DNA from: Thermoleophilaceae bacterium
GTDB taxonomy: Bacteria; Actinomycetota; Thermoleophilia; Solirubrobacterales; Thermoleophilaceae
NCBI GenBank assembly: GCA_016929195.1
Contig: JAFGJG010000041.1
Span: 1 to 38,375 of the forward strand
Length of the DNA: 38,375 bases
Reading direction: 5' to 3'
Shown: positions 13,196-26,837 of the stretch, in pieces
Layout: every line of letters starts with the position of its first letter
Position numbering within the stretch: the first letter of the stretch is position 1
Position numbers and translations under genes: made by a program
Notes under the pieces: generated by a model
The model's database searches: none
Seen by the model: the letters and a program-made list of their open reading frames with translations, nothing else
Told to the model about the DNA's origin: nothing

Positions 13196-13224
13196 GGGCG
13201 GGGGCGCACTGGTCGCCCCCGCCC
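13196..13224 (-). terminator. Strong hairpin between livK and livH
   Basis: An 11-bp perfect GC stem (arms 13196-13206 and 13214-13224) with a 7-base loop begins 26 bases after the livK stop. The T-run after it is weak (CCCTTCG). It could be a terminator that lets some transcripts through, or an mRNA-stabilising 3' hairpin for livK. Either would raise binding-protein levels above those of the permease, as is common for ABC importers. Confidence 0.7.
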
Positions 13225-17769: not shown

Positions 17770-18558
17770 TCAGGAAAGAGCGGAGGCGAGCTCTTCCACG
17801 ACCGCCCCGACCGCCGCCGCGCCGCCCTCGCCGGCCGCGCGGACGATCCGGCTGCCGACGATGACGCCGTCGGCGATCTCGGCTACGGCGCGCGCCTGGG
17901 CGCCGGTCGAGATCCCGAAGCCGACCGCCACCGGCACCTGGGCGGCGTCGCGGATGCGGGCGACCATCTCCGCCAGCCCCTCCGCCACCGAGTCGCGCTC
18001 GCCGGTCGTGCCTGTGAGCGAGACCGCGTACACGAACCCGCGGGCGTCGGCGCCGATTTCGGCGATCCGCTCCGGGGTGCTGGTGGGTGCCACGAGCGGG
18101 ACCAGCGCGATGCCCTCGGCGTCGCAGGCGGCGCGCAGCTCGCCCGACTCGTCGTGCGGCATGTCCGGCACGATCAGGCCGGCCGCGCCCGCCGAGGCGG
18201 CCCGCAGCGCGAACGCCTCGACCCCCGCGGCCAGCACGGCGTTCGCGTAGACCATCAGCACGACCGGCAGCCGCTCGGCCAGGCGCTCGCAGACGGTCAG
18301 CACCCCGTAGGGCGTGGCGCCCGCCGCGAGCGCGCGCGTGGCGGCGTCATGGATCACGGGCCCGTCCGCGAGCGGGTCCGAGAACGGGATGCCCAGCTCG
18401 ATCAGGTCCGCCCCCGCGTCCGCCGCGGCCTCGGCGGCCGCCAGCGAGGCCTCCTGGTCCGGGAAGCCGCCCATCAGGTAGGGCATCAGCGCGGCGCGCT
18501 TGCCGTGCCCCGCGAACGCCGAGGCGATCCGGTCCACACCCGTCGACGCCACGCTCAT
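17770..18558 (-). CDS. trpA: Tryptophan synthase alpha subunit
   Basis: 262 residues. It cleaves indole-3-glycerol phosphate to indole, which is channelled to TrpB. The catalytic Glu54 is in [12 protein letters not shown] and Asp65 in [10 protein letters not shown], the 11-residue spacing of the enteric E49/D60 pair. Further landmarks are [43 protein letters not shown] and [13 protein letters not shown]. Length is normal. The ATG at 18558 overlaps the trpB stop as ATGA, so the two subunits are translationally coupled. Confidence 0.97.
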
Positions 18559-19715
18559 TCGCCCAGCACCTCGGCCAGGTCCTTGTCGCCGCGCCCGGAC
18601 AGCGTGACCAGCGACAGCCCCGGATCCGGGTGGGCGAGCAGCCAGGCGATCGCGTGGGCGGGCTCGAGCGCCGGAAGGATCCCCTCGAGCCGCGCCACCG
18701 TGCCGAACGCCGCGAGGGCGTCCTCGTCGGACACCGCCACGTAGCGGACCCGGCCGGAGTCGCGCAGGAAGGCGTGCTCGGGGCCCGAGCCGGGATAGTC
18801 GAGGCCGGCGGAGACCGAGTGCGCCTCGAGGATCTGGCCCTCCTCGTCCTGGAGCACGGCCGACAGCGCGCCGTGCAGGACGCCGCGCGCGCCGGTCGTG
18901 AGCGGCGCCGAGTGGCGCATCGTGTCGAGCCCCTCCCCCGCCGCCTCAACGCCGATCAGCTCGACCTCGGCGTCGCCGGCGAAGGGGATGAACGTGCCGA
19001 TCGCGTTCGAGCCGCCGCCCACGCAGGCGATCACGCGGTCGGGCAGGCGGCCCGCCGCCTCGCGCACCTGGGCGCGGGCCTCGTCGCCGATGACCCGCTG
19101 GAGGTCGCGCACGAGCGCCGGGTACGGCGCCGGCCCGACGGCCGAGCCGATCACGTAGTGGGTCGTCTCCACATTCGCCACCCAGTCGCGGATCGCGGCG
19201 GACACCGCCTCCTTCAGCGTGCGCGCGCCCGCGTCGACCGAGCGCACCTCGGCGCCGAGCAGCCGCATCCGCTGGACGTTCGGCCGCTGGCGGCGCATGT
19301 CCTCCGCGCCCATGTAGACGACGCACTCGAGGCCCAGCAGCGCACACGCCGTGGCGCTCGCCACCCCGTGCTGGCCCGCGCCGGTCTCAGCGATAACGCG
19401 GGGCTTTCCCATCCGCTTGGCGAGCAGCGCCTGCCCGAGCGCGTTGTTCAGCTTGTGCGACCCGGTGTGGAGCAGGTCCTCGCGCTTCAGCCAGACGTCC
19501 CCGCCCACGGCCGCCGAGAGGCCCGGCGCGCGGTAGAGCGGCGTCGGCCTGCCCGCGTAGTCGCGCAGCAGCCGCCCGAGCTCCTCCTGGAACGCCGGGT
19601 CGGCCCGGGCCGCGACCCACTCGCGCTCGAGCTCGTCGAGCGCCGGGATCAGCGTCTCGGGCACGTAGCGGCCCCCGTAGGGCCCGAAGCGCCGCTCGAC
19701 GGCGGGCGTGCTCAC
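18555..19715 (-). CDS. trpB: Tryptophan synthase beta subunit
   Basis: A 386-residue PLP enzyme joining indole and serine. The PLP lysine is Lys88 in [37 protein letters not shown] contains the catalytic-loop region (E/GAGQH), and [11 protein letters not shown] binds the PLP phosphate. It also has [16 protein letters not shown] and LSGRGDKDL, near the C-terminus. This is the TrpB1 type that pairs with TrpA. GTG at 19715 overlaps the trpF stop as GTGA. A longer reading upstream would run through trpF in the wrong frame. Confidence 0.97.
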
Positions 19716-20359
19716 GCGGCCGCGCCCAGGCGGGCGTCCGCGGCCTCGACCGCACGGAAGAACGCCTGCAGCCGCCCCGGATCCTTGCGTCCCGGCTCGG
19801 CCTCGGTGCCGCTCGCGCTGTCGACCGCGAAGGGCCGCGTCTCGGCGATGCCCTCGCCCACGATGTCGGGCGTCAGCCCGCCCGACAGGATCAGCGGCGG
19901 GTTCCGGCCGTGCAGCTTCGCGAGCCGCCAGTCGAAGCGCTCGCCGGTCCCGCCGGGCCTGTCGGGCGAGTGTGCGTCGAGCAGGTGATAGTCCGTGTGG
20001 AACGCGCCGAGGTCGCGCACCTGCGCGGCGTCGCGGACGCGCGCGGCCTTGATCACCCGGCACCCGGTCCGGCGGCCGGCCTCGCGGCAGTAGGCGGGCC
20101 CCTCGTCGCCGTGCAGCTGGAGGAGCGTCAGCCGGCAGCGGTCGGCCGTCGCCGCGACCTCGTCGAGCGTGGCGTTCACGAACACTCCCGCGACCTCAGT
20201 CCGGCGCAGGAGCTCGGCCCCGATCACCTCGGCCTCCGGCAGCTCGCAGCGCCGCGGGCTGCCGGGCCAGAAGATCAATCCCACGGCCCAGGCGCCGAGG
20301 TCCGCGCTCGCGGTCGCGTCGGCGAGCGACGTGACTCCGCAGATCTTGACGTTGGTCAC
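19712..20359 (-). CDS. trpF: Phosphoribosylanthranilate isomerase
   Basis: A 215-residue TIM-barrel enzyme, third step of tryptophan synthesis. General acid/base residues are Cys7 (VKICGVT) and Asp128 (HLLDAHS). Other landmarks are [42 protein letters not shown] and the phosphate site [16 protein letters not shown]. It begins the second trp block (trpFBA). GTG at 20359 lies 7 bases after TACCAT and abuts a 7-bp-arm inverted repeat, so this block probably has its own promoter and is not a readthrough product of htrA. Confidence 0.96.
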
Positions 20360-20379
20360 CGGGCCAATGGTAGGCCCGG
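20359..20379. promoter_or_regulatory. Inverted repeat flanking the -10 of trpFBA
   Basis: CCGGGCC (20359-20365) and GGCCCGG (20373-20379) enclose a 7-base spacer. On the minus strand that spacer reads TACCATT, with the -10-like TACCAT at 20372-20367 ending 7 bases before the trpF GTG. The first G of the start codon belongs to the repeat. It could be an operator, an RNA hairpin ending the htrA message, or both. Confidence 0.5.
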
Positions 20380-20386
20380 CTCCGGG

Positions 20387-21586
20387 TCAGGGCTCCGTGG
20401 TGAGGGAGCCGCAGCCGCCCGCGGCGGAGTCGGCCGGGCGCTTGCCCAGCTCCACCGTGGCCGTCCTGCGGTCGTTGCCGCGGTAGTAGGAGACCTTGAT
20501 CCTGTCGCCCGGCTTGTGCCGGTCGATCGCGGCCGAGACCTCCTCGGGCGCGCTCACCCGGCGGCCGTCGACCTCCACGATCAGGTCGCCGCCGGCCTGG
20601 ATGCCGGTCGCGGTGCCGGTGCGGCCGCCGCGCAGACCCGCCCTGTCGGCGGGTCCCTTCTTCGTCACGCACGTCACGAGCACCCCGTCCTCGGTGGGCA
20701 GGTTCAGGTCGCTCGCGATGTCGCCCGTCACCGGCGACATCACGACGCCGAGGTAGGCGCGCTCGATCTCACCGCCCGAGCGCAGCTGCGGCAGGAGCCG
20801 CTTGGCCGTGTTGATCGGGATGGCGAAGCCGATCCCGACCGAGCCGCTGCCGCCGCCGGTCGCGATCTGCGAGTTGATGGCGATCACCCGCCCGTTCGCG
20901 TCCATGAGCGGCCCGCCCGAGTTGCCCGGGTTGATCGAGGCGTCGGTCTGGATCACGTTCGAGATGGAGAAGCCGTTGGGAGCCTTGATCTCCCGCGCCA
21001 CGGCCGAGACGATCCCCGTGGTCACCGTGCGCGTGAACCCGAAGGGGTTGCCGATCGCGACGACGGGGTCGCCGACCTCGGCGGCATCCGAGTCGCCCAG
21101 GGGGACCGGCGGGGCGCCGTTGATCTTCTTCGGGTCGACCTTCAGCACCGCGAGGTCGGTGGATGGGTCGCGGCCCTTCACCTGGGCGTCGATCTGCTCG
21201 CCGCCCTCGTCGAAGCTGACCGTCACGTCGTTCGAGCCCTCGACCACGTGCGCGTTCGTGATGATCGTGCCGTCCCGGTCCACCAGGAATCCCGAGCCGG
21301 TGGCGGTGCCCTCCTGCTCCTGCGGGAGGCCGAACAGAGACGGGTCCTCCTGCACGCCGCGCGCGGAGACGAAGACCACGCCGCGGCCCTCCGTGCGGTA
21401 GATGTCGGCGACGGTCTTGCCGCCCGCCTTGGCCGGCGAGGTGGGTTCCGAGACCGGTCCCTGGCGCACGACCGTCCTGGTGTCGTCGCCCGTGTCGATC
21501 ACGTCCGCGGCGATCAGCACGACGCCGAGCACGAGCACGACGAGGCCTCCAGCGAGGCCGGACAGCAGGTATCCGTAGCGCGACAT
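20387..21586 (-). CDS. htrA: HtrA-like membrane-anchored serine protease with PDZ domain
   Basis: A 399-residue envelope protease. A single N-terminal anchor (about 8-29, LSGLAGGLVVLVLGVVLIAA) and a short linker precede the trypsin-like domain. The catalytic triad is His113 (TNAHVV), Asp144 (STDLAVL) and Ser223 (NPGNSGGPL). A PDZ domain covers about 290-385 (AYLGVVMSPVTGDIASDLNL, then GVLVTCVTKKGPADRAGLRG). The active site should face outside, for quality control or signalling. ATG at 21586 is chosen over a TTG one codon earlier. It follows the transglutaminase gene after 35 bases that contain a long palindrome. Confidence 0.93.
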   Translation of the reverse strand: MSRYGYLLSGLAGGLVVLVLGVVLIAADVIDTGDDTRTVVRQGPVSEPTSPAKAGGKTVADIYRTEGRGVVFVSARGVQEDPSLFGLPQEQEGTATGSGFLVDRDGTIITNAHVVEGSNDVTVSFDEGGEQIDAQVKGRDPSTDLAVLKVDPKKINGAPPVPLGDSDAAEVGDPVVAIGNPFGFTRTVTTGIVSAVAREIKAPNGFSISNVIQTDASINPGNSGGPLMDANGRVIAINSQIATGGGSGSVGIGFAIPINTAKRLLPQLRSGGEIERAYLGVVMSPVTGDIASDLNLPTEDGVLVTCVTKKGPADRAGLRGGRTGTATGIQAGGDLIVEVDGRRVSAPEEVSAAIDRHKPGDRIKVSYYRGNDRRTATVELGKRPADSAAGGCGSLTTEP

Positions 21587-21590
21587 CAAG

Positions 21591-21622
21591 GTTGTTCTTA
21601 GGTCGGCAACCTAAGAGACAAC
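21591..21622. promoter_or_regulatory. 32-base imperfect palindrome in front of htrA
   Basis: The core arms TCTTAGGT (21596-21603) and ACCTAAGA (21609-21616) flank a 5-base centre. Outer arms GTTGT (21591-21595) and ACAAC (21618-21622) extend it, with one unpaired base at 21617. It reaches from the transglutaminase stop codon to four bases before the in-frame TTG/ATG pair of htrA. The TTAGGT/ACCTAA halves resemble DtxR/IdeR-family sites, but the spacing is 5 rather than 7. The T-run after it is too short for a standard terminator. The likely role is an operator; that is inference. Confidence 0.55.
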
Positions 21623-23952
21623 TAAAGCGGGCGCGGACCGCCGGGTGGTATCGCGGCCAGCCCGCGCAGCCGCGCGAGCGGATTCCGGCCCGTAAGCTCG
21701 CGGCGCAGAGCGCGCCGCTCCGCCGGTCCCGGCCCCCGCGGCGCGCGCGGGTCGAAGCGGTGGGCGCGGAGCGCGGCGGCGTAGCCGGCGGACGCGGGCC
21801 CCACCGTCCGGCCGAGCCGCCGCTCGAGCGCCAGGAGCGTCGTCGCGTCCGGCAGCGAGTACCCGAGCCCCACGAGCGCGCGCCTCAGCTCCGCCAGCTG
21901 CGCCTCGACGAGCCGCTCACCGGACAGGTCGCGCCGCGAGCGAAGCCTGCGGTAGCCGAGCGCACCGGCCCCGGCGAGCAGCGCCGCCAGCACGAGCGTC
22001 CACCACGGGAGGCCGCCGCCGGCGCCCGCGCCGTCCGCGTCGGCTCCACCTGCGCGCTCGGACGTGGGCGACACGCCGTCGCGCGAGCGCACCTCGCCCG
22101 CGTCCCCGGCGGCGGCGCTGGTGGCGCCGAGGCCGCTCGACTGCGACTCGGCGGGCGCGGCCGTCGGCGTCGGGTCGAACGGCACCCAGCCGATCCCGTT
22201 GAAGTAGACCTCGACCCAGGAGTGCGCGTCGAGGTCGCGGACGCGGTACTCGCCGCTGTCGCGGTTGAAGGACCCGGGTGAGAACCCGGCGACGACCCTG
22301 GCCGGGATGCCCGACAGGCGCAGGAGGAGCGCCATGGCCCCTGAGAACTGCTGGCAGTAGCCGATCTTGTCCTCGAACAGGAAGGCGTCGAGCGGCAGGC
22401 CCGCGCTCGGCGGCCGCTCGCTGTAGCGGAAGCCGCGCTGGAGGTGGTTCTCCACCGCCTTGACGGCGTCGTAGGTGCTGGCCTCTCCCCCCGTGAGCCG
22501 CTGAGCCAGGCGATAGGCGCGCGCGTAGCGCGAGTTGCGGAGCGTCACGTCCGCGCTCGGGTCGTAACCGGCGGGACCGTCGCGCAGCGGCACCTGCACC
22601 GCGTCGCGTTGGGCCACGGACAGAGGCGACAGCGACTCGCCGTCGAGGGCGCTCTCGTCCTCCGACGGCAGCGCCAGGGTGGTGAACTGGAGCAGCGAGA
22701 GGTTCCCGTCGAGCGGCGAGCCGCGCATCTGGGCGGCCGTCGGGTCGGGCGCGTAGGCGTGCACCGTGTAGGAGTCGCCGCGCTCGAGCGGGTCCTCGCT
22801 CACACGGATGGTCGTGCCGTCCTGGGAGCTGGACGTCACGCCGGCGTCCTCGACCCGATAGGTGATCCCCGCGCCCACGATCAGCTGGCTCGACAGCGAG
22901 CGCACGGTGACCGTGAACTGCTCGTCCCAGCGCGGGTTGTACTCGAAGTAGTCCCACGTGCGGCCCTCGCGCACGCGCGACTCCGGGAGGCCGGGAAGGT
23001 CCTGGGTCGGGCTGCTCGCGTCCGTCCGCAGCCAGCGGAAGCCGTCGAACCCGTCGAGGGTCTCGACCTTCCAGTAGTGCGGCCGGCTCGACTTGATGTT
23101 GAGCAGCGTCGTCCCGTCGCGCGGCCAGTCGAGCGGCCCGTACGAGTGCGTCCAGTCGAAGGTGACCGAGCGGCCGCCGCCGAAGAGCTGCCACTCGCGG
23201 TAGTTCCACCACGGCTCGTCGGCGTCGAACGACGCGGCCGCGGGCACCGCCAGCAGCCCGACCGAGGCCACGACCGCGGCGCCGGTGAGCGCCTCGCGCC
23301 GCGTGAGGCGCGGCAGCCAGAGCCAGGCTCCCACCAGCGCGAGAAGCACGAACCCGCGCAGCAGCGGGGCTCCCGGGTCGTGCTCGGTGACGGAGGTCCC
23401 GTACATCACGAGCAGCACCACGAGCCCGGCCAGCCTGAGCGCGCGCGCACCGCGGCGAACCGGGAAGAAGGCGAGCGCCGCGGCGGTCGCGAGCAGCGCG
23501 GGCGCCCCGAGCAGGATCGTCAGCCTGATCCACTCGTCCGGGCCGGCATAGGGCCAGTCGATCGTCTGGATGCCCTCGAGCCCGCGGTACAGGCCGTCCG
23601 CCAGCTCGTCCCAGCCGCGCGGCCCCAGCAGCCGCAGCTGGAGGCCGGCAGCCATGAGCGCCAGCACGAACATGACCAGCGTCACGACGCCCGCGAGCGC
23701 CAGAACCGCGCCGTGCCGGAGTCCGGTCCGCGGGAGCAGCGCCAGCGCCGCCGCGCCGGCCGTCACCACCGTGACCATCAGCAGCGTCCTCCAAACGGGC
23801 GCGTCCGCCACAAGCCCCGCCCAGTGGGCGGCGCCGTAGGCGGCCAGGGCGACGAAGCACGCCAGCCGAACCGCCAGGGAGTCGCCCACCGGCTCGCCCT
23901 CGACGGCGAACGCCGCCGGGCGGGCGAGCGGCTCGGCGACCGCGGTCGTCAC
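21622..23952 (-). CDS. Membrane-bound transglutaminase-like protein (TgpA/DUF3488 type)
   Basis: 776 residues. The N-terminal part (about 25-230) has six or more membrane helices. A large extracytoplasmic region follows, then a papain-like transglutaminase core with Cys533 (GYCQQFSGAMALLLR), His577 (DAHSWVEVYF) and Asp593 (WVPFDPTP). A Gly/Ala/Ser-rich linker, one more helix (WWTLVLAALLAGAGALGY) and a cytoplasmic DUF4129-like tail close the protein. Proteins of this layout are regularly encoded beside MoxR and DUF58 genes, as here; their substrate is not established. GTG at 23952 overlaps the DUF58 stop as GTGA. Confidence 0.92.
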   Translation of the reverse strand: MTTAVAEPLARPAAFAVEGEPVGDSLAVRLACFVALAAYGAAHWAGLVADAPVWRTLLMVTVVTAGAAALALLPRTGLRHGAVLALAGVVTLVMFVLALMAAGLQLRLLGPRGWDELADGLYRGLEGIQTIDWPYAGPDEWIRLTILLGAPALLATAAALAFFPVRRGARALRLAGLVVLLVMYGTSVTEHDPGAPLLRGFVLLALVGAWLWLPRLTRREALTGAAVVASVGLLAVPAAASFDADEPWWNYREWQLFGGGRSVTFDWTHSYGPLDWPRDGTTLLNIKSSRPHYWKVETLDGFDGFRWLRTDASSPTQDLPGLPESRVREGRTWDYFEYNPRWDEQFTVTVRSLSSQLIVGAGITYRVEDAGVTSSSQDGTTIRVSEDPLERGDSYTVHAYAPDPTAAQMRGSPLDGNLSLLQFTTLALPSEDESALDGESLSPLSVAQRDAVQVPLRDGPAGYDPSADVTLRNSRYARAYRLAQRLTGGEASTYDAVKAVENHLQRGFRYSERPPSAGLPLDAFLFEDKIGYCQQFSGAMALLLRLSGIPARVVAGFSPGSFNRDSGEYRVRDLDAHSWVEVYFNGIGWVPFDPTPTAAPAESQSSGLGATSAAAGDAGEVRSRDGVSPTSERAGGADADGAGAGGGLPWWTLVLAALLAGAGALGYRRLRSRRDLSGERLVEAQLAELRRALVGLGYSLPDATTLLALERRLGRTVGPASAGYAAALRAHRFDPRAPRGPGPAERRALRRELTGRNPLARLRGLAAIPPGGPRPL

Positions 23953-25058
23953 GCCGCCGCGCTCCGGCCCGCGCGCGTGACCCGGCAGCCGGTGCAGCCG
24001 GCCACCTCGAACACCTTCGGCGCGCCGGGCGGTGCGCCGGGCGCGACCACGAAGCGCGCGCCGGCCGGCAGCCGCTCGAGCGCGCGCGGCGCCGCCGCGA
24101 TGTCGGCGCCCGTGACCCACAGCACCGCTCCGCCGCGCGGCGCGAGCGCGGCGGCGGAGGGCGGCGGCCCCTCCTGCACGAGGGCGAGCCGGACGTGGAC
24201 CGACGGCCATGCTCCCATGTCGTGCCCGACCTCCACCGGCCGGCGGTCGCCGGGCAGCAGGATCGCGCAGCCCGTCGTGCGCGCGAGGTGGACGCAGAGC
24301 GAGCCGGCCGCGCGCACCGCCATGTCCAGCGCCTCGGCGCTCGCGGGCGCCGAGGGGTCGAGCACGATCAGCGGCGCCGAGTCGAGCTCGGCCACGAGCC
24401 GGCGCTCGAGCATCTCGCCGTGCCGGGCGACCGACGGCCAGTGGATCCGCGATGCCGGCGAGCCCTCCCGATAGCTCCGCAGGCCGTCGATCTCGAGCTC
24501 CGCTGCCGCGGCGTCGAGGCGCCTGCCCGCCAGGCCGGGCTCGGCGCCGATCCCCGTGCGGTCGCCGGCGCCGGCGCCCCCGCCGCCGGGTGTGTGGACG
24601 GGCTCGACGCGCGGCAGCACGAGCACCTCTCCCTCCGCCTCGCCCTCCACCACGCGCTCGCACATCCGCAGCGGGTCGCGGATCACGAGCCGCCCGGGCT
24701 CGAGCCGCCGGCGCCCGCGCTGCGAGAAGCGGATGTTGATCCGCACGCGTCGCGACCAGCGCCCGGCGATCGGCACCGGCCAGCCCAGCAGCGGCTCGAT
24801 CAGCTCGCCGCCCGGCGGCGGCAGCACTCCCGAGCGCAGCTCGACGCGCAGCGGGTAGGGCTCGTCCTCCACCACCCGCGGGGGCCCGGGGCTCCGGGTG
24901 ACGCTGGCCCCGTGGGCGGCGAGCGGGACCCAGACCGCCGCGCCGGCGGCGAGGAGCGTGAGGGCCACGCCGGGCAGGTAGAGCGACGGGGTGTCGAAGG
25001 TCCCGGCCGCCAGGCAGAGGCCGATCCCGAGGAGCGCGGTTCCGATCGCCCGCGTCAC
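23949..25058 (-). CDS. DUF58 domain protein of the MoxR module
   Basis: 369 residues. Two hydrophobic segments lie at the N-terminus (about 4-22 and 29-48). A beta-rich region follows (RRVRINIRFSQRGRRRLEPG, then IRDPLRM), and then the DUF58 signature LRSYREGSPASRIHWPSVAR, with the conserved R..REGD-like and W.S.AR pattern. The C-terminal half resembles a degenerate von Willebrand A fold. DUF58 proteins are partners of MoxR ATPases. GTG at 25058 lies 13 bases after the moxR stop. The C-terminal CTGC motif (AGCTGCRVTRAG) is an unusual Cys pair whose role is unknown. Confidence 0.9.
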   Translation of the reverse strand: MTRAIGTALLGIGLCLAAGTFDTPSLYLPGVALTLLAAGAAVWVPLAAHGASVTRSPGPPRVVEDEPYPLRVELRSGVLPPPGGELIEPLLGWPVPIAGRWSRRVRINIRFSQRGRRRLEPGRLVIRDPLRMCERVVEGEAEGEVLVLPRVEPVHTPGGGGAGAGDRTGIGAEPGLAGRRLDAAAAELEIDGLRSYREGSPASRIHWPSVARHGEMLERRLVAELDSAPLIVLDPSAPASAEALDMAVRAAGSLCVHLARTTGCAILLPGDRRPVEVGHDMGAWPSVHVRLALVQEGPPPSAAALAPRGGAVLWVTGADIAAAPRALERLPAGARFVVAPGAPPGAPKVFEVAGCTGCRVTRAGRSAAA

Positions 25059-25071
25059 GGCCGGCGCCGCG

Positions 25072-26022
<951 letters not shown>

Positions 26023-26046
26023 GCCGCCCCATAGTAGGGGGGCGGC
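26023..26046. promoter_or_regulatory. Inverted repeat flanking the -10 of moxR
   Basis: GCCGCCCC (26023-26030) and GGGGCGGC (26039-26046) enclose an 8-base spacer. Minus-strand TACTAT (26036-26031) lies in the spacer and ends 8 bases before the moxR ATG, so a leaderless transcript is predicted. The layout is the same as before trpF. As RNA it would be a strong hairpin after trpC without a U-run. Confidence 0.5.
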
Positions 26047-26051
26047 CCGGG

Positions 26052-26837
26052 CTACTCGTCGGATCGAGTCAGCTCGCGGACGGCCACCTCCGGATCGGGC
26101 GCTCGCATGAGCGTTTCTCCGATCAGAACGGCGTCCACTCCGACCTGCTCGAGCTCGTCGATCTGGTGGCGTGCGTGGATGCCCGACTCGGACACCACGA
26201 CCTTGCCCGCCGGCACGTCGGCGATCAGGTCGAACGTGCGCTGGAGGTCGACGCTGAAGTCCTCGAGGTCGCGGTTGTTGATGCCGAGCACGTCGGCGTC
26301 CACCTCGAGCGCGATCTCGAGCTCCTCGGGCAGCGACACCTCGACGATCGCATCCAGGTCCAGGTCGCCGGCGAGCGCGTGCAGCGAGCCCAGCTCCTCG
26401 CGCTTCAGCGAGCCGACCACGAGGAGCACCGCGTCTGCGCCGGCCGCCTTGGCCTCGTAGAGCTGGTACGGGTCGACCGTGAAGTCCTTGCGGAGGATCG
26501 GGAGCTCGGTCGCGGCGCGGGCCTCGGCCAGGTCGGCGAGCGAGCCGCCGAAGTGCGTCTCCTCGGTGAGGATCGAGACCGCCGCGGCACCACCGGCCTC
26601 GTAGGCGCGCACGAGGTCCGCACAGCTCGCGCCCTCGCGGATCGTGCCCGCCGACGGGGAGCGGCGCTTGTGCTCCGCGATCAGCGACGTGCCGGGGCGG
26701 GAGAGCGCCTCGGCGAACGGCCGCCCCTCGCGCCCGCTGCCGACCTCGCGCTCGAGCTCCGCGAGCGGGCGCTCGCCCTTGCGCCGGTGGACGGCGTCGC
26801 GGGTGGCCTCGACCAGGCTGTCGAGCCGGGCGCTCAC
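26052..26837 (-). CDS. trpC: Indole-3-glycerol phosphate synthase
   Basis: A 261-residue TIM-barrel enzyme, fourth step of tryptophan synthesis. Catalytic and phosphate motifs are SLIAEHKRRSPSAGTIRE, VSILTEETHFGGSLADL, ILRKDFTVDPYQLYEAKAAG, LGINNRDLEDFSVDL and VVVSESGIHARHQI. In the first motif the residue after AE is His, where many homologues have Val or Ile (AEVK / AEIK). GTG at 26837 overlaps the trpD stop as GTGA. It is the last gene of the hisIE-trpEGDC unit. Confidence 0.96.
   Translation of the reverse strand: MSARLDSLVEATRDAVHRRKGERPLAELEREVGSGREGRPFAEALSRPGTSLIAEHKRRSPSAGTIREGASCADLVRAYEAGGAAAVSILTEETHFGGSLADLAEARAATELPILRKDFTVDPYQLYEAKAAGADAVLLVVGSLKREELGSLHALAGDLDLDAIVEVSLPEELEIALEVDADVLGINNRDLEDFSVDLQRTFDLIADVPAGKVVVSESGIHARHQIDELEQVGVDAVLIGETLMRAPDPEVAVRELTRSDE

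What the first reader, a model, noticed from the sequence alone, without database searches (positions are those of the whole stretch)
21591..21622. Long palindrome in front of htrA with DtxR/IdeR-like half-sites
The halves TTAGGT and ACCTAA match iron/manganese-repressor half-sites, but with a 5-base instead of a 7-base centre, plus GTTGT/ACAAC outer arms. A minus-strand TAGGTT inside the first arm could be a -10. Metal control, or a dedicated stress regulator, of an envelope protease would be new.
Basis: partly seen in the sequence, partly recalled or inferred. Interest (0 to 1): 0.5.

Follow-up and report, generated by a model that had tools for sequence, protein, structure and literature searches.

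The report
Stress-protease promoter resembling CiaR-type control
The palindrome in front of this protease gene is a by-product of a conserved promoter with a two-repeat activator site that relatives also place before a protein-folding gene, and before a small-RNA-like gene in a sister family, much like a well-known stress regulon of streptococci.

Summary
The palindrome is real (window 21591-21622) but it is not the conserved unit. It is unique in the genome, its inner dyad is broken in both same-genus relatives examined, and the DtxR spacing is wrong. What is conserved, gaplessly, in 14 of 18 family htrA loci is a promoter: two half-sites 11 nt apart (consensus NTTTAG-N5-NTTAAG), 10 nt, a -10-like TAGAAC, then 6-11 nt to the start codon (probably a leaderless mRNA). 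The palindrome arises because the second half-site and the -10 are complementary in this species. The same element precedes a parvulin-type (PrsA/SurA-like) PPIase gene, in this genome too, and in a sister family precedes a ~60-nt hairpin RNA with a C-rich loop. Box, spacing and target classes resemble the streptococcal CiaR regulon (htrA, prsA, csRNAs). Best reading: an envelope/secretion-stress promoter activated by an OmpR-family response regulator that works like CiaR. The regulator is not identified (13 candidate domains) and no single genome was shown to have all three targets, so CiaR membership is not claimed. DtxR control is not supported; 'a dedicated stress regulator' is.

The parts
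21591..21622 (.). The reported palindrome (inner 8-bp dyad 21596-21616; outer 5-bp arms with 1-nt bulge)
   Evidence: not conserved in relatives
21622..21627 (-). First half-site, CTTTAG (columns 4-9 of A1/A2); overlaps the stop codon TAG of the upstream transglutaminase-like gene
   Evidence: Alignments A1 (14 sites) and A2 (26 sites); T and A of TnA present in 26 of 26
21611..21616 (-). Second half-site, TCTTAG (columns 15-20), 11 nt after the first; forms one arm of the palindrome
   Evidence: TnA present in 26 of 26 sites, G or C after it in 26 of 26
21595..21600 (-). Probable -10 element, TAAGAA (family consensus TAGAAC), 10 nt after the second half-site; forms the other arm
   Evidence: TA at columns 31-32 in 25 of 26 sites; 6-11 nt to the start codon in the 14 A1 sites
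21593..21630 (-). Whole 38-nt promoter element
   Evidence: Profile of 13 relatives, own site left out, scores 18.8 here; 7.2 one base away, next elsewhere in the window 6.6. R1: 17.0 bits, E 0.026, only hit in the genome at E<=10 (own site was in R1)
20387..21586 (-). htrA (trypsin-like protease + PDZ, N-terminal membrane segment by eye), ATG at 21586; start codon 8 nt after the -10
21622..24663 (-). ORF of the upstream gene: TgpA-like N-terminal domain + transglutaminase core (true start probably near 23950, inferred from the overlapping ORF 23949-25058)

Best explanation
The bases form an internal promoter for htrA. Shown: a conserved, gapless element of two half-sites with an 11-nt period (consensus NTTTAG-N5-NTTAAG; here CTTTAG-N5-TCTTAG), 10 nt, a -10-like hexamer (TAGAAC; TAAGAA here), then 6-11 nt to the start codon with no obvious ribosome-binding site by eye; in front of htrA in most family loci examined, in front of a parvulin PPIase in about half including this genome, and in a sister family in front of a ~60-nt hairpin RNA-like sequence. 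Inferred: an OmpR-family response regulator, activated by misfolded exported protein or envelope damage, binds the two half-sites as a tandem dimer in place of a -35 element and recruits RNA polymerase; transcription starts at or next to the A of ATG, giving a leaderless htrA mRNA and uncoupling htrA (and perhaps trpF-trpB-trpA downstream) from the surrounding trp cluster. The palindrome is an accident of this species: the second half-site region (CTTAGG) and the -10 region (CCTAAG) are complementary. By box, spacing and target classes it works like the streptococcal CiaR regulon; whether the regulator is related to CiaR is unknown.
For: Fixed geometry in 14 of 18 family htrA loci. R1, trained on those 14, over 31 family genomes at E<=0.3: 21 places, 17 before htrA and 4 before the PPIase; 14 of the 17 were training sites, and the 7 new places are 3 htrA and 4 PPIase. 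Own PPIase: CTTA-N7-TTTAC-N10-TAGACA-N8-ATG scores 23.5 with a profile of 13 relatives' htrA sites, next best 3.3 in 4.5 kb. R2 (26 sites) over 232 genomes of the order, E<=0.1: 36 places = 16 htrA, 9 PPIase, 9 sRNA-like, 2 other; the 14 places outside the training set are 1 htrA, 2 PPIase, 9 sRNA-like, 2 other. The sRNA-like sequence begins 7 nt after the hexamer, where the start codon stands in many htrA sites, which supports the start-site assignment; its hairpin has 4 of 10 pairs with changes on both sides, all 80 cells paired. CiaR: NTTAAG-N5-TTTAAG with invariant third T, second A and final G, 10 nt to the -10 (PMC3091779, passages); N22 to the start site, with prsA ('potentially also ComX regulon') and csRNAs in Table 4 (PMC6560143, passages); htrA a CiaR target (PMC4295557, PMC11034029, passages).
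Against: No regulator identified, no expression data. R1 missed the own-genome PPIase site at E<=10; R2, trained on it, gives E 0.298 for it and 0.339 for htrA, and neither own site passes in the order-wide scan, which used stricter filters. At E<=5 R2 also gives 5 other places among 35 (1 tatA-like, 4 unexplained). 8 of 31 family genomes have no R2 hit at E<=5; 11 of 21 family PPIase loci lack a clear site, and so do 6 of 6 from other families. Own htrA site has the lowest leave-one-out score of the 14 (18.8; highest 42.4). 1 of 100 column-shuffled profiles also had its best window hit near this place; best shuffled score 17.5. The first half-site consensus is TTTAG rather than CiaR's TTAAG, and column 9 is not G or C in 4 of 26. 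htrA, PPIase and sRNA sites were not all shown in any one genome. Recognition helices do not decide (11 of 13 compared, best 8 of 13 identical to CiaR's). Such a layout is common to OmpR-family activators in general (recalled).
Confidence: 0.7

Rival explanations
1. An alternative sigma factor reads the element directly (TTTA / TTAAG / TAGAAC as an unusual promoter) with no response regulator.
For: The -10 lacks the usual final T in nearly all A2 sites; the conserved blocks have fixed spacing.
Against: No conserved block sits 16-19 nt upstream of the hexamer: the blocks TTTA and TTAAG end 22 and 10 nt upstream. The 9 sister-family sRNA sites have an ordinary TANNNT hexamer. TnA repeated at 11 nt is known from OmpR-family boxes (PMC10704036 Table 2; MtrA 9-nt repeats with 2-nt spacing, PMC6265350).
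Confidence: 0.12
2. A dimeric repressor or activator binds the palindrome itself, as a species-specific operator laid over the promoter.
For: Exact AT-rich dyad, 0.03 expected per shuffled window; it covers the -10, a classic repressor position.
Against: Unique in the genome at up to 1 mismatch; 3 of 8 pairs in each of the two same-genus sites; pairing in the alignment 60.6% against 58.5% shuffled, 96 of 500 shuffles as high; covariation score reached by 41 of 500.
Confidence: 0.08
3. DtxR/IdeR-family metal-dependent operator controlling htrA.
For: Half-sites TTAGGT/ACCTAA; the genome has 2 DtxR-family domains over the Pfam cut-off.
Against: 5-nt instead of 7-nt centre; no exact TTAGG-N9-CCTAA in the genome; dyad not conserved; the genes that share the conserved element are mostly protein-folding genes.
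Confidence: 0.02
4. RNA hairpin: terminator, attenuator or translation-blocking structure in read-through mRNA from the upstream gene.
For: Stable hairpin ending 4 nt before ATG; it fills the gap between two genes of a likely operon.
Against: No T-run after either arm; dyad not kept in the 13 other aligned sites; if transcription starts at the ATG it is not in the main mRNA.
Confidence: 0.04

Closest known systems
CiaRH regulon of streptococci (CiaR box NTTAAG-N5-TTTAAG)
   Same: 11-nt repeat period; the invariant T-n-A positions; 10 nt to the -10; about 22-23 nt from box to start where the spacer is 6-7; target classes htrA, parvulin PPIase (prsA) and small RNAs with unpaired stretches complementary to Shine-Dalgarno sequences (PMC3091779, PMC6560143, PMC8186281: passages seen).
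   Different: Different phylum; first half-site mostly TTTAG; final G often C; -10 TAGAAC; mRNAs predicted leaderless; sRNA found only in a sister family; no CiaR or CiaH orthologue identified.
MprAB-HtrA/PepD of Corynebacterium and Mycobacterium
   Same: Actinobacterial envelope-stress response regulator with htrA as a direct target; C. glutamicum motif TKTTAAGAAM resembles the half-sites (PMC12113857, passages). The genome has two RR-HK-HtrA operons.
   Different: Published C. glutamicum motif is a single 10-bp sequence, not a two-repeat box; in front of the RR-HK-HtrA operons' own htrA genes there is at most a weak site (C163, score 2.9).
CssRS and CutRS of Streptomyces
   Same: Two-component control of htrA genes in secretion stress (PMC12802291 and PMC3498368, passages).
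   Different: CutR motif TAWATAAA is unlike this element; the words motif, consensus and binding site do not occur in the main text of the CssRS paper, so CssR could not be compared.
GlnR and MtrA boxes (GlnR: GTnAC-n6-GTnAC)
   Same: TnA repeated with an 11-nt period in Actinobacteria (PMC10704036 Table 2, PMC6265350, passages).
   Different: Letters around TnA differ (mostly T or C before, G or C after); different targets.

Membership tests
DtxR/IdeR operator | 19-bp dyad TTAGG-N9-CCTAA (recalled consensus) | tested here: not met
   Here TTAGGT-N5-ACCTAA; no exact TTAGG-N9-CCTAA in the genome
DtxR/IdeR operator | Recurs before metal-uptake genes of the genome | tested here: not met
   Palindrome occurs once at up to 1 mismatch, before htrA
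OmpR-family response-regulator box | Direct repeat with about 11-bp period upstream of a -10, replacing the -35 | tested here: met
   26 of 26 sites have TnA at both positions; 10-nt gap to the hexamer
OmpR-family response-regulator box | Bound by a PF00486 regulator | not testable with these tools
   13 PF00486 domains in the genome, none assigned
CiaR regulon | NTTAAG-N5-TTTAAG, third T, second A and final G invariant | tested here: inconclusive
   T and A at the same places in both repeats (26 of 26); final letter is G in 14 of 26 (column 9) and 18 of 26 (column 20), C in 8 and 8
CiaR regulon | 10 nt from box to -10; N22 to start site | tested here: inconclusive
   10 nt in the aligned sites. 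Start codon 6-11 nt after the hexamer, i.e. N22-23 where the spacer is 6-7; real start sites unknown
CiaR regulon | Targets htrA, prsA and small RNAs | tested here: inconclusive
   htrA and PPIase in family f1 (and in this genome), sRNA-like gene in f3; not all three in one genome
CiaR regulon | Controlled by a CiaR orthologue with helix VVEVYVSKVRKKL | tested here: inconclusive
   11 of 13 helices compared, best 8 of 13 identical (two regulators); no orthology test made
Intrinsic terminator | GC-rich hairpin followed by a T-run | tested here: not met
   Arms AT-rich, no T-run on either side (sequence)

The most novel reading that the evidence does not exclude
A CiaR-like envelope-stress circuit (same box grammar and, spread over two families, the same three target classes: HtrA, parvulin PPIase, C-rich-loop small RNA) operates in an order of Actinomycetota, with leaderless target mRNAs and an sRNA family without an Rfam gathering match; either the circuit is ancient across Gram-positive phyla or evolution arrived twice at the same wiring.
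Probability: 0.4. Interest if true: 0.75.

Novelty: new variant of a known kind. Interest (0 to 1): 0.55.

Why it matters
It turns an apparent metal-repressor palindrome into a concrete candidate regulon with a defined motif, predicted start site and targets in a poorly studied actinobacterial order. The correspondence with CiaR (htrA, prsA, sRNA) is unexpectedly detailed and makes a question testable: is this protein-quality-control wiring ancestral to Gram-positive phyla or convergent? It also supplies a motif model for finding the regulator and a candidate sRNA family.

Tried and rejected
Exact composite pattern in the own genome: none, because the own site differs at column 18; replaced by profile R1. 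Shared dyad tested on 14 sites, 13 distinct: near shuffled level, rejected. Sites in the RR-HK-HtrA operons: only the C163 htrA shows the geometry, weakly (2.9, the top of its 5.5 kb). In L141 (G006) a 15.0 place lies inside the response-regulator gene and an 8.5 place lies just upstream of that gene with a poor second half-site and hexamer; I read neither as autoregulation. Second htrA type: same geometry in G006 (9.3) and G015 (8.5); in six others with upstream DNA scores are -6.3 to 3.5, and two loci (L129, L138) lacked upstream DNA. Relaxed box in the 16 htrA loci without a clear site: 6 have it (L003, L014 of f1; L021, L022, L023, L024 of f2/f3); background 52 of 12,405 start-like codons in 130 loci, 0.42%, known sites not removed; several start codons per locus were allowed, so the comparison is rough. 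Rows left out: of 30 PPIase loci, L061, L063 and L073 had too little upstream DNA and were not scored; seven of the 25 family genomes returned no htrA locus among the 30 loci. L074 (G017) precedes an htrA frame with an early stop. Rfam on six sRNA loci: no gathering match; on L230 the best weak match was 6C RNA, 24.8 bits against cut-off 47. Literature: Solirubrobacter/leaderless/promoter (one paper, unrelated by title) and Thermoleophilia/htrA/response regulator/promoter (330 papers with 3 of 4 terms, 8 listed, 'Thermoleophilia' in none of the 8); this does not prove absence from print.

Full report
Observation. It fills the gap between the stop codon of a transglutaminase-like gene (TAG, 21622-21624, minus) and the htrA start, which is ATG at 21586. 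Twenty exact dyads of 8 bp or more occur in the window against 13.8 per shuffle; this is the only one with at least 5 A/T in the arm, against 0.03 per shuffle. It occurs once in the 3.46-Mb genome at up to one mismatch.

Palindromy is not what is conserved. In 14 aligned sites from the family (13 distinct) only this species forms all 8 inner base pairs; the two same-genus sites form 3 each and the other eleven 2 to 6. Pair counts on the alignment are near shuffled level: 60.6% against 58.5% of cells paired (96 of 500 shuffles as high), covariation score reached by 41 of 500.

What is conserved. The htrA search returned loci from 18 of the 25 family genomes searched. In 14 of these 18 lies a gapless element, TTTA-N7-TTAAG-N10-TAGAAC in consensus, with 6-11 nt to the start codon. 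I see no obvious ribosome-binding sequence in that short spacer (by eye), so the mRNAs are probably leaderless. A profile from the 13 relatives alone, applied to both strands of the window, gives 18.8 at 21593 (minus), 7.2 one base away and 6.6 elsewhere; of 100 column-shuffled profiles the best score was 17.5 and one had its top hit near this place. In this genome the second half-site (TCTTAG, 21611-21616) and the -10 (TAAGAA, 21595-21600) lie in the palindrome's two arms. The own site has the lowest leave-one-out score of the 14.

Regulon. Model R1, built from those 14 sites, found one site in the own genome at E<=10, this one. In 25 genomes including the own, at E<=1, it gave 12 places: 9 htrA, 2 before a parvulin-type PPIase lipoprotein gene next to an mfd-like gene (G010, G004) and 1, weak (E 0.85), before a TatA-like protein (G013; by eye). 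In 31 family genomes at E<=0.3 it gave 21 places, 17 htrA and 4 PPIase; 14 were training sites, and the 7 new ones are 3 htrA and 4 PPIase. Looking upstream of the PPIase orthologues, 10 of 21 family loci, but 0 of 6 from other families, had a site scoring 7.8 or more; the own genome's scores 23.2, or 23.5 with its htrA site left out. R1 itself did not reach that site, and R2, which includes it, gives both own sites only E 0.30-0.34. In that R2 scan of 31 family genomes at E<=5 there were 35 places: 18 htrA, 12 PPIase, 1 probably tatA (G022) and 4 others. The PPIase assignment rests on Pfam Rotamase and SurA_N matches for L033 and the own gene.

Sister families. R2 over 232 genomes of the order at E<=0.1, with stricter filters, gave 36 places in 30 genomes: 16 htrA, 9 PPIase, 9 before a conserved short RNA-like sequence in family f3, and 2 others (identities). 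Outside the training set there are 14: 1 htrA, 2 PPIase, the 9 RNA-like, and the 2 others. The f3 sequence starts GGACGAGACAC 7 nt after a TANNNT hexamer and forms a GC hairpin, followed by a T-run in 6 of 9 copies. Its hairpin has 4 of 10 pairs changed on both sides with all 80 cells paired; 0 of 500 shuffles reach the covariation score (8 distinct sequences). The loop is C-rich (CUCCC or longer), complementary to Shine-Dalgarno-like GGGAG (by eye). Relaxed, GC-shifted boxes at the right distance also precede htrA in L021, L022, L023 and L024 of f2/f3 (4 of 12 loci from other families; background 0.42% per start-like codon).

Mechanism. TnA repeated at 11 nt in 26 of 26 sites, followed after 10 nt by a -10 and with no conserved -35, is the layout of OmpR-family activators. 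In streptococci CiaR binds NTTAAG-N5-TTTAAG, with the third T, second A and last G of each repeat invariant and 10 nt to the -10 (PMC3091779, passages); the box stands N22 from the start site, and Table 4 of PMC6560143 lists a parvulin-type prsA (noted as potentially also ComX-controlled) and csRNAs (passages); htrA is a CiaR target as well (PMC4295557; PMC11034029; passages). The present element has the same T and A positions, mostly G or C in place of the G, the same 10-nt gap and, where the spacer is 6-7 nt, the same distance to the predicted start. I therefore conclude that it works like a CiaR promoter. I do not file it as CiaR: the regulator is not known, and htrA, PPIase and sRNA were not all found in one genome. 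The genome has 13 PF00486 domains; two belong to RR-HK-HtrA operons resembling MprAB-PepD (gene order recalled) or CssRS with a neighbouring HtrA gene (PMC3498368), and recognition helices, compared for 11 of 13, do not decide.

DtxR. Two DtxR-family domains over the cut-off exist, but no exact TTAGG-N9-CCTAA box does, and the spacing, lack of conservation and target genes speak against metal control.

Context. htrA lies inside a trp gene cluster: IGPS (trpC) at 26052-26837, a MoxR-type AAA ATPase, an ORF without Pfam match at E<=0.001, the transglutaminase-like gene, htrA, then PRAI (trpF) at 19712-20359; trpB and trpA follow by reading the ORFs (no profile search). The promoter would free htrA, and possibly trpF-trpB-trpA, from trp control; that is inference.

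Limits. All evidence is comparative. The family is uneven: 8 of 31 genomes lack any R2 hit at E<=5, and 11 of 21 PPIase loci lack a clear site. Many of these genomes are incomplete. Organism names are withheld; the order is probably within or near Thermoleophilia (weak).

Noticed in passing
L230-L237, L239 (family f3), e.g. L230:1542-1600; second copy of GGACGAGACAC in L235 at 1275-1285: Conserved ~60-nt sRNA-like sequence (GGACGAGACAC, then a hairpin; T-run in 6 of 9) behind the same promoter element; no Rfam gathering match in the six loci scanned, weak resemblance to 6C RNA.
   Followed up: partly
window 17770-26837: Envelope-type genes (MoxR-type ATPase, transglutaminase-like, htrA) are interleaved in a trp gene cluster (trpC ... 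htrA ... trpF); in L021, L031 and L150 a trpC-like end seems to lie directly upstream of htrA (by eye, untested).
   Followed up: partly
L127 (G000:C36) and L128 (G000:C163): Two further htrA paralogues, each in a response regulator-histidine kinase-HtrA operon; the C163 htrA has a weak GC-shifted box (TTCA-N7-TTCAC-N10-CAGGCT-N7-ATG).
   Followed up: partly
L041 and L095 (genus g12): Weak box (TTTA-N7-TTTAG-N10-GACGCT) in front of a TatA-like gene in one genome and probably its counterpart in another of the same genus (by eye).
   Followed up: no
L121/L122 (G000:C14:60240-61362): Two neighbouring OmpR-type DNA-binding proteins on opposite strands with related recognition helices, one in an open frame too short for a receiver domain.
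   Followed up: no
PPIase upstream regions, L044-L072: Many carry a GCTANNNT-like sequence further upstream (by eye), perhaps a second, housekeeping promoter.
   Followed up: no
L098 (G014) and L238 (G207): Two other places with the element: before a 239-aa probably secreted protein and before a 68-aa cysteine-containing small protein.
   Followed up: no
window 13196-13224: Longest exact dyad of the window (11 bp, all G+C, 7-nt centre).
   Followed up: no
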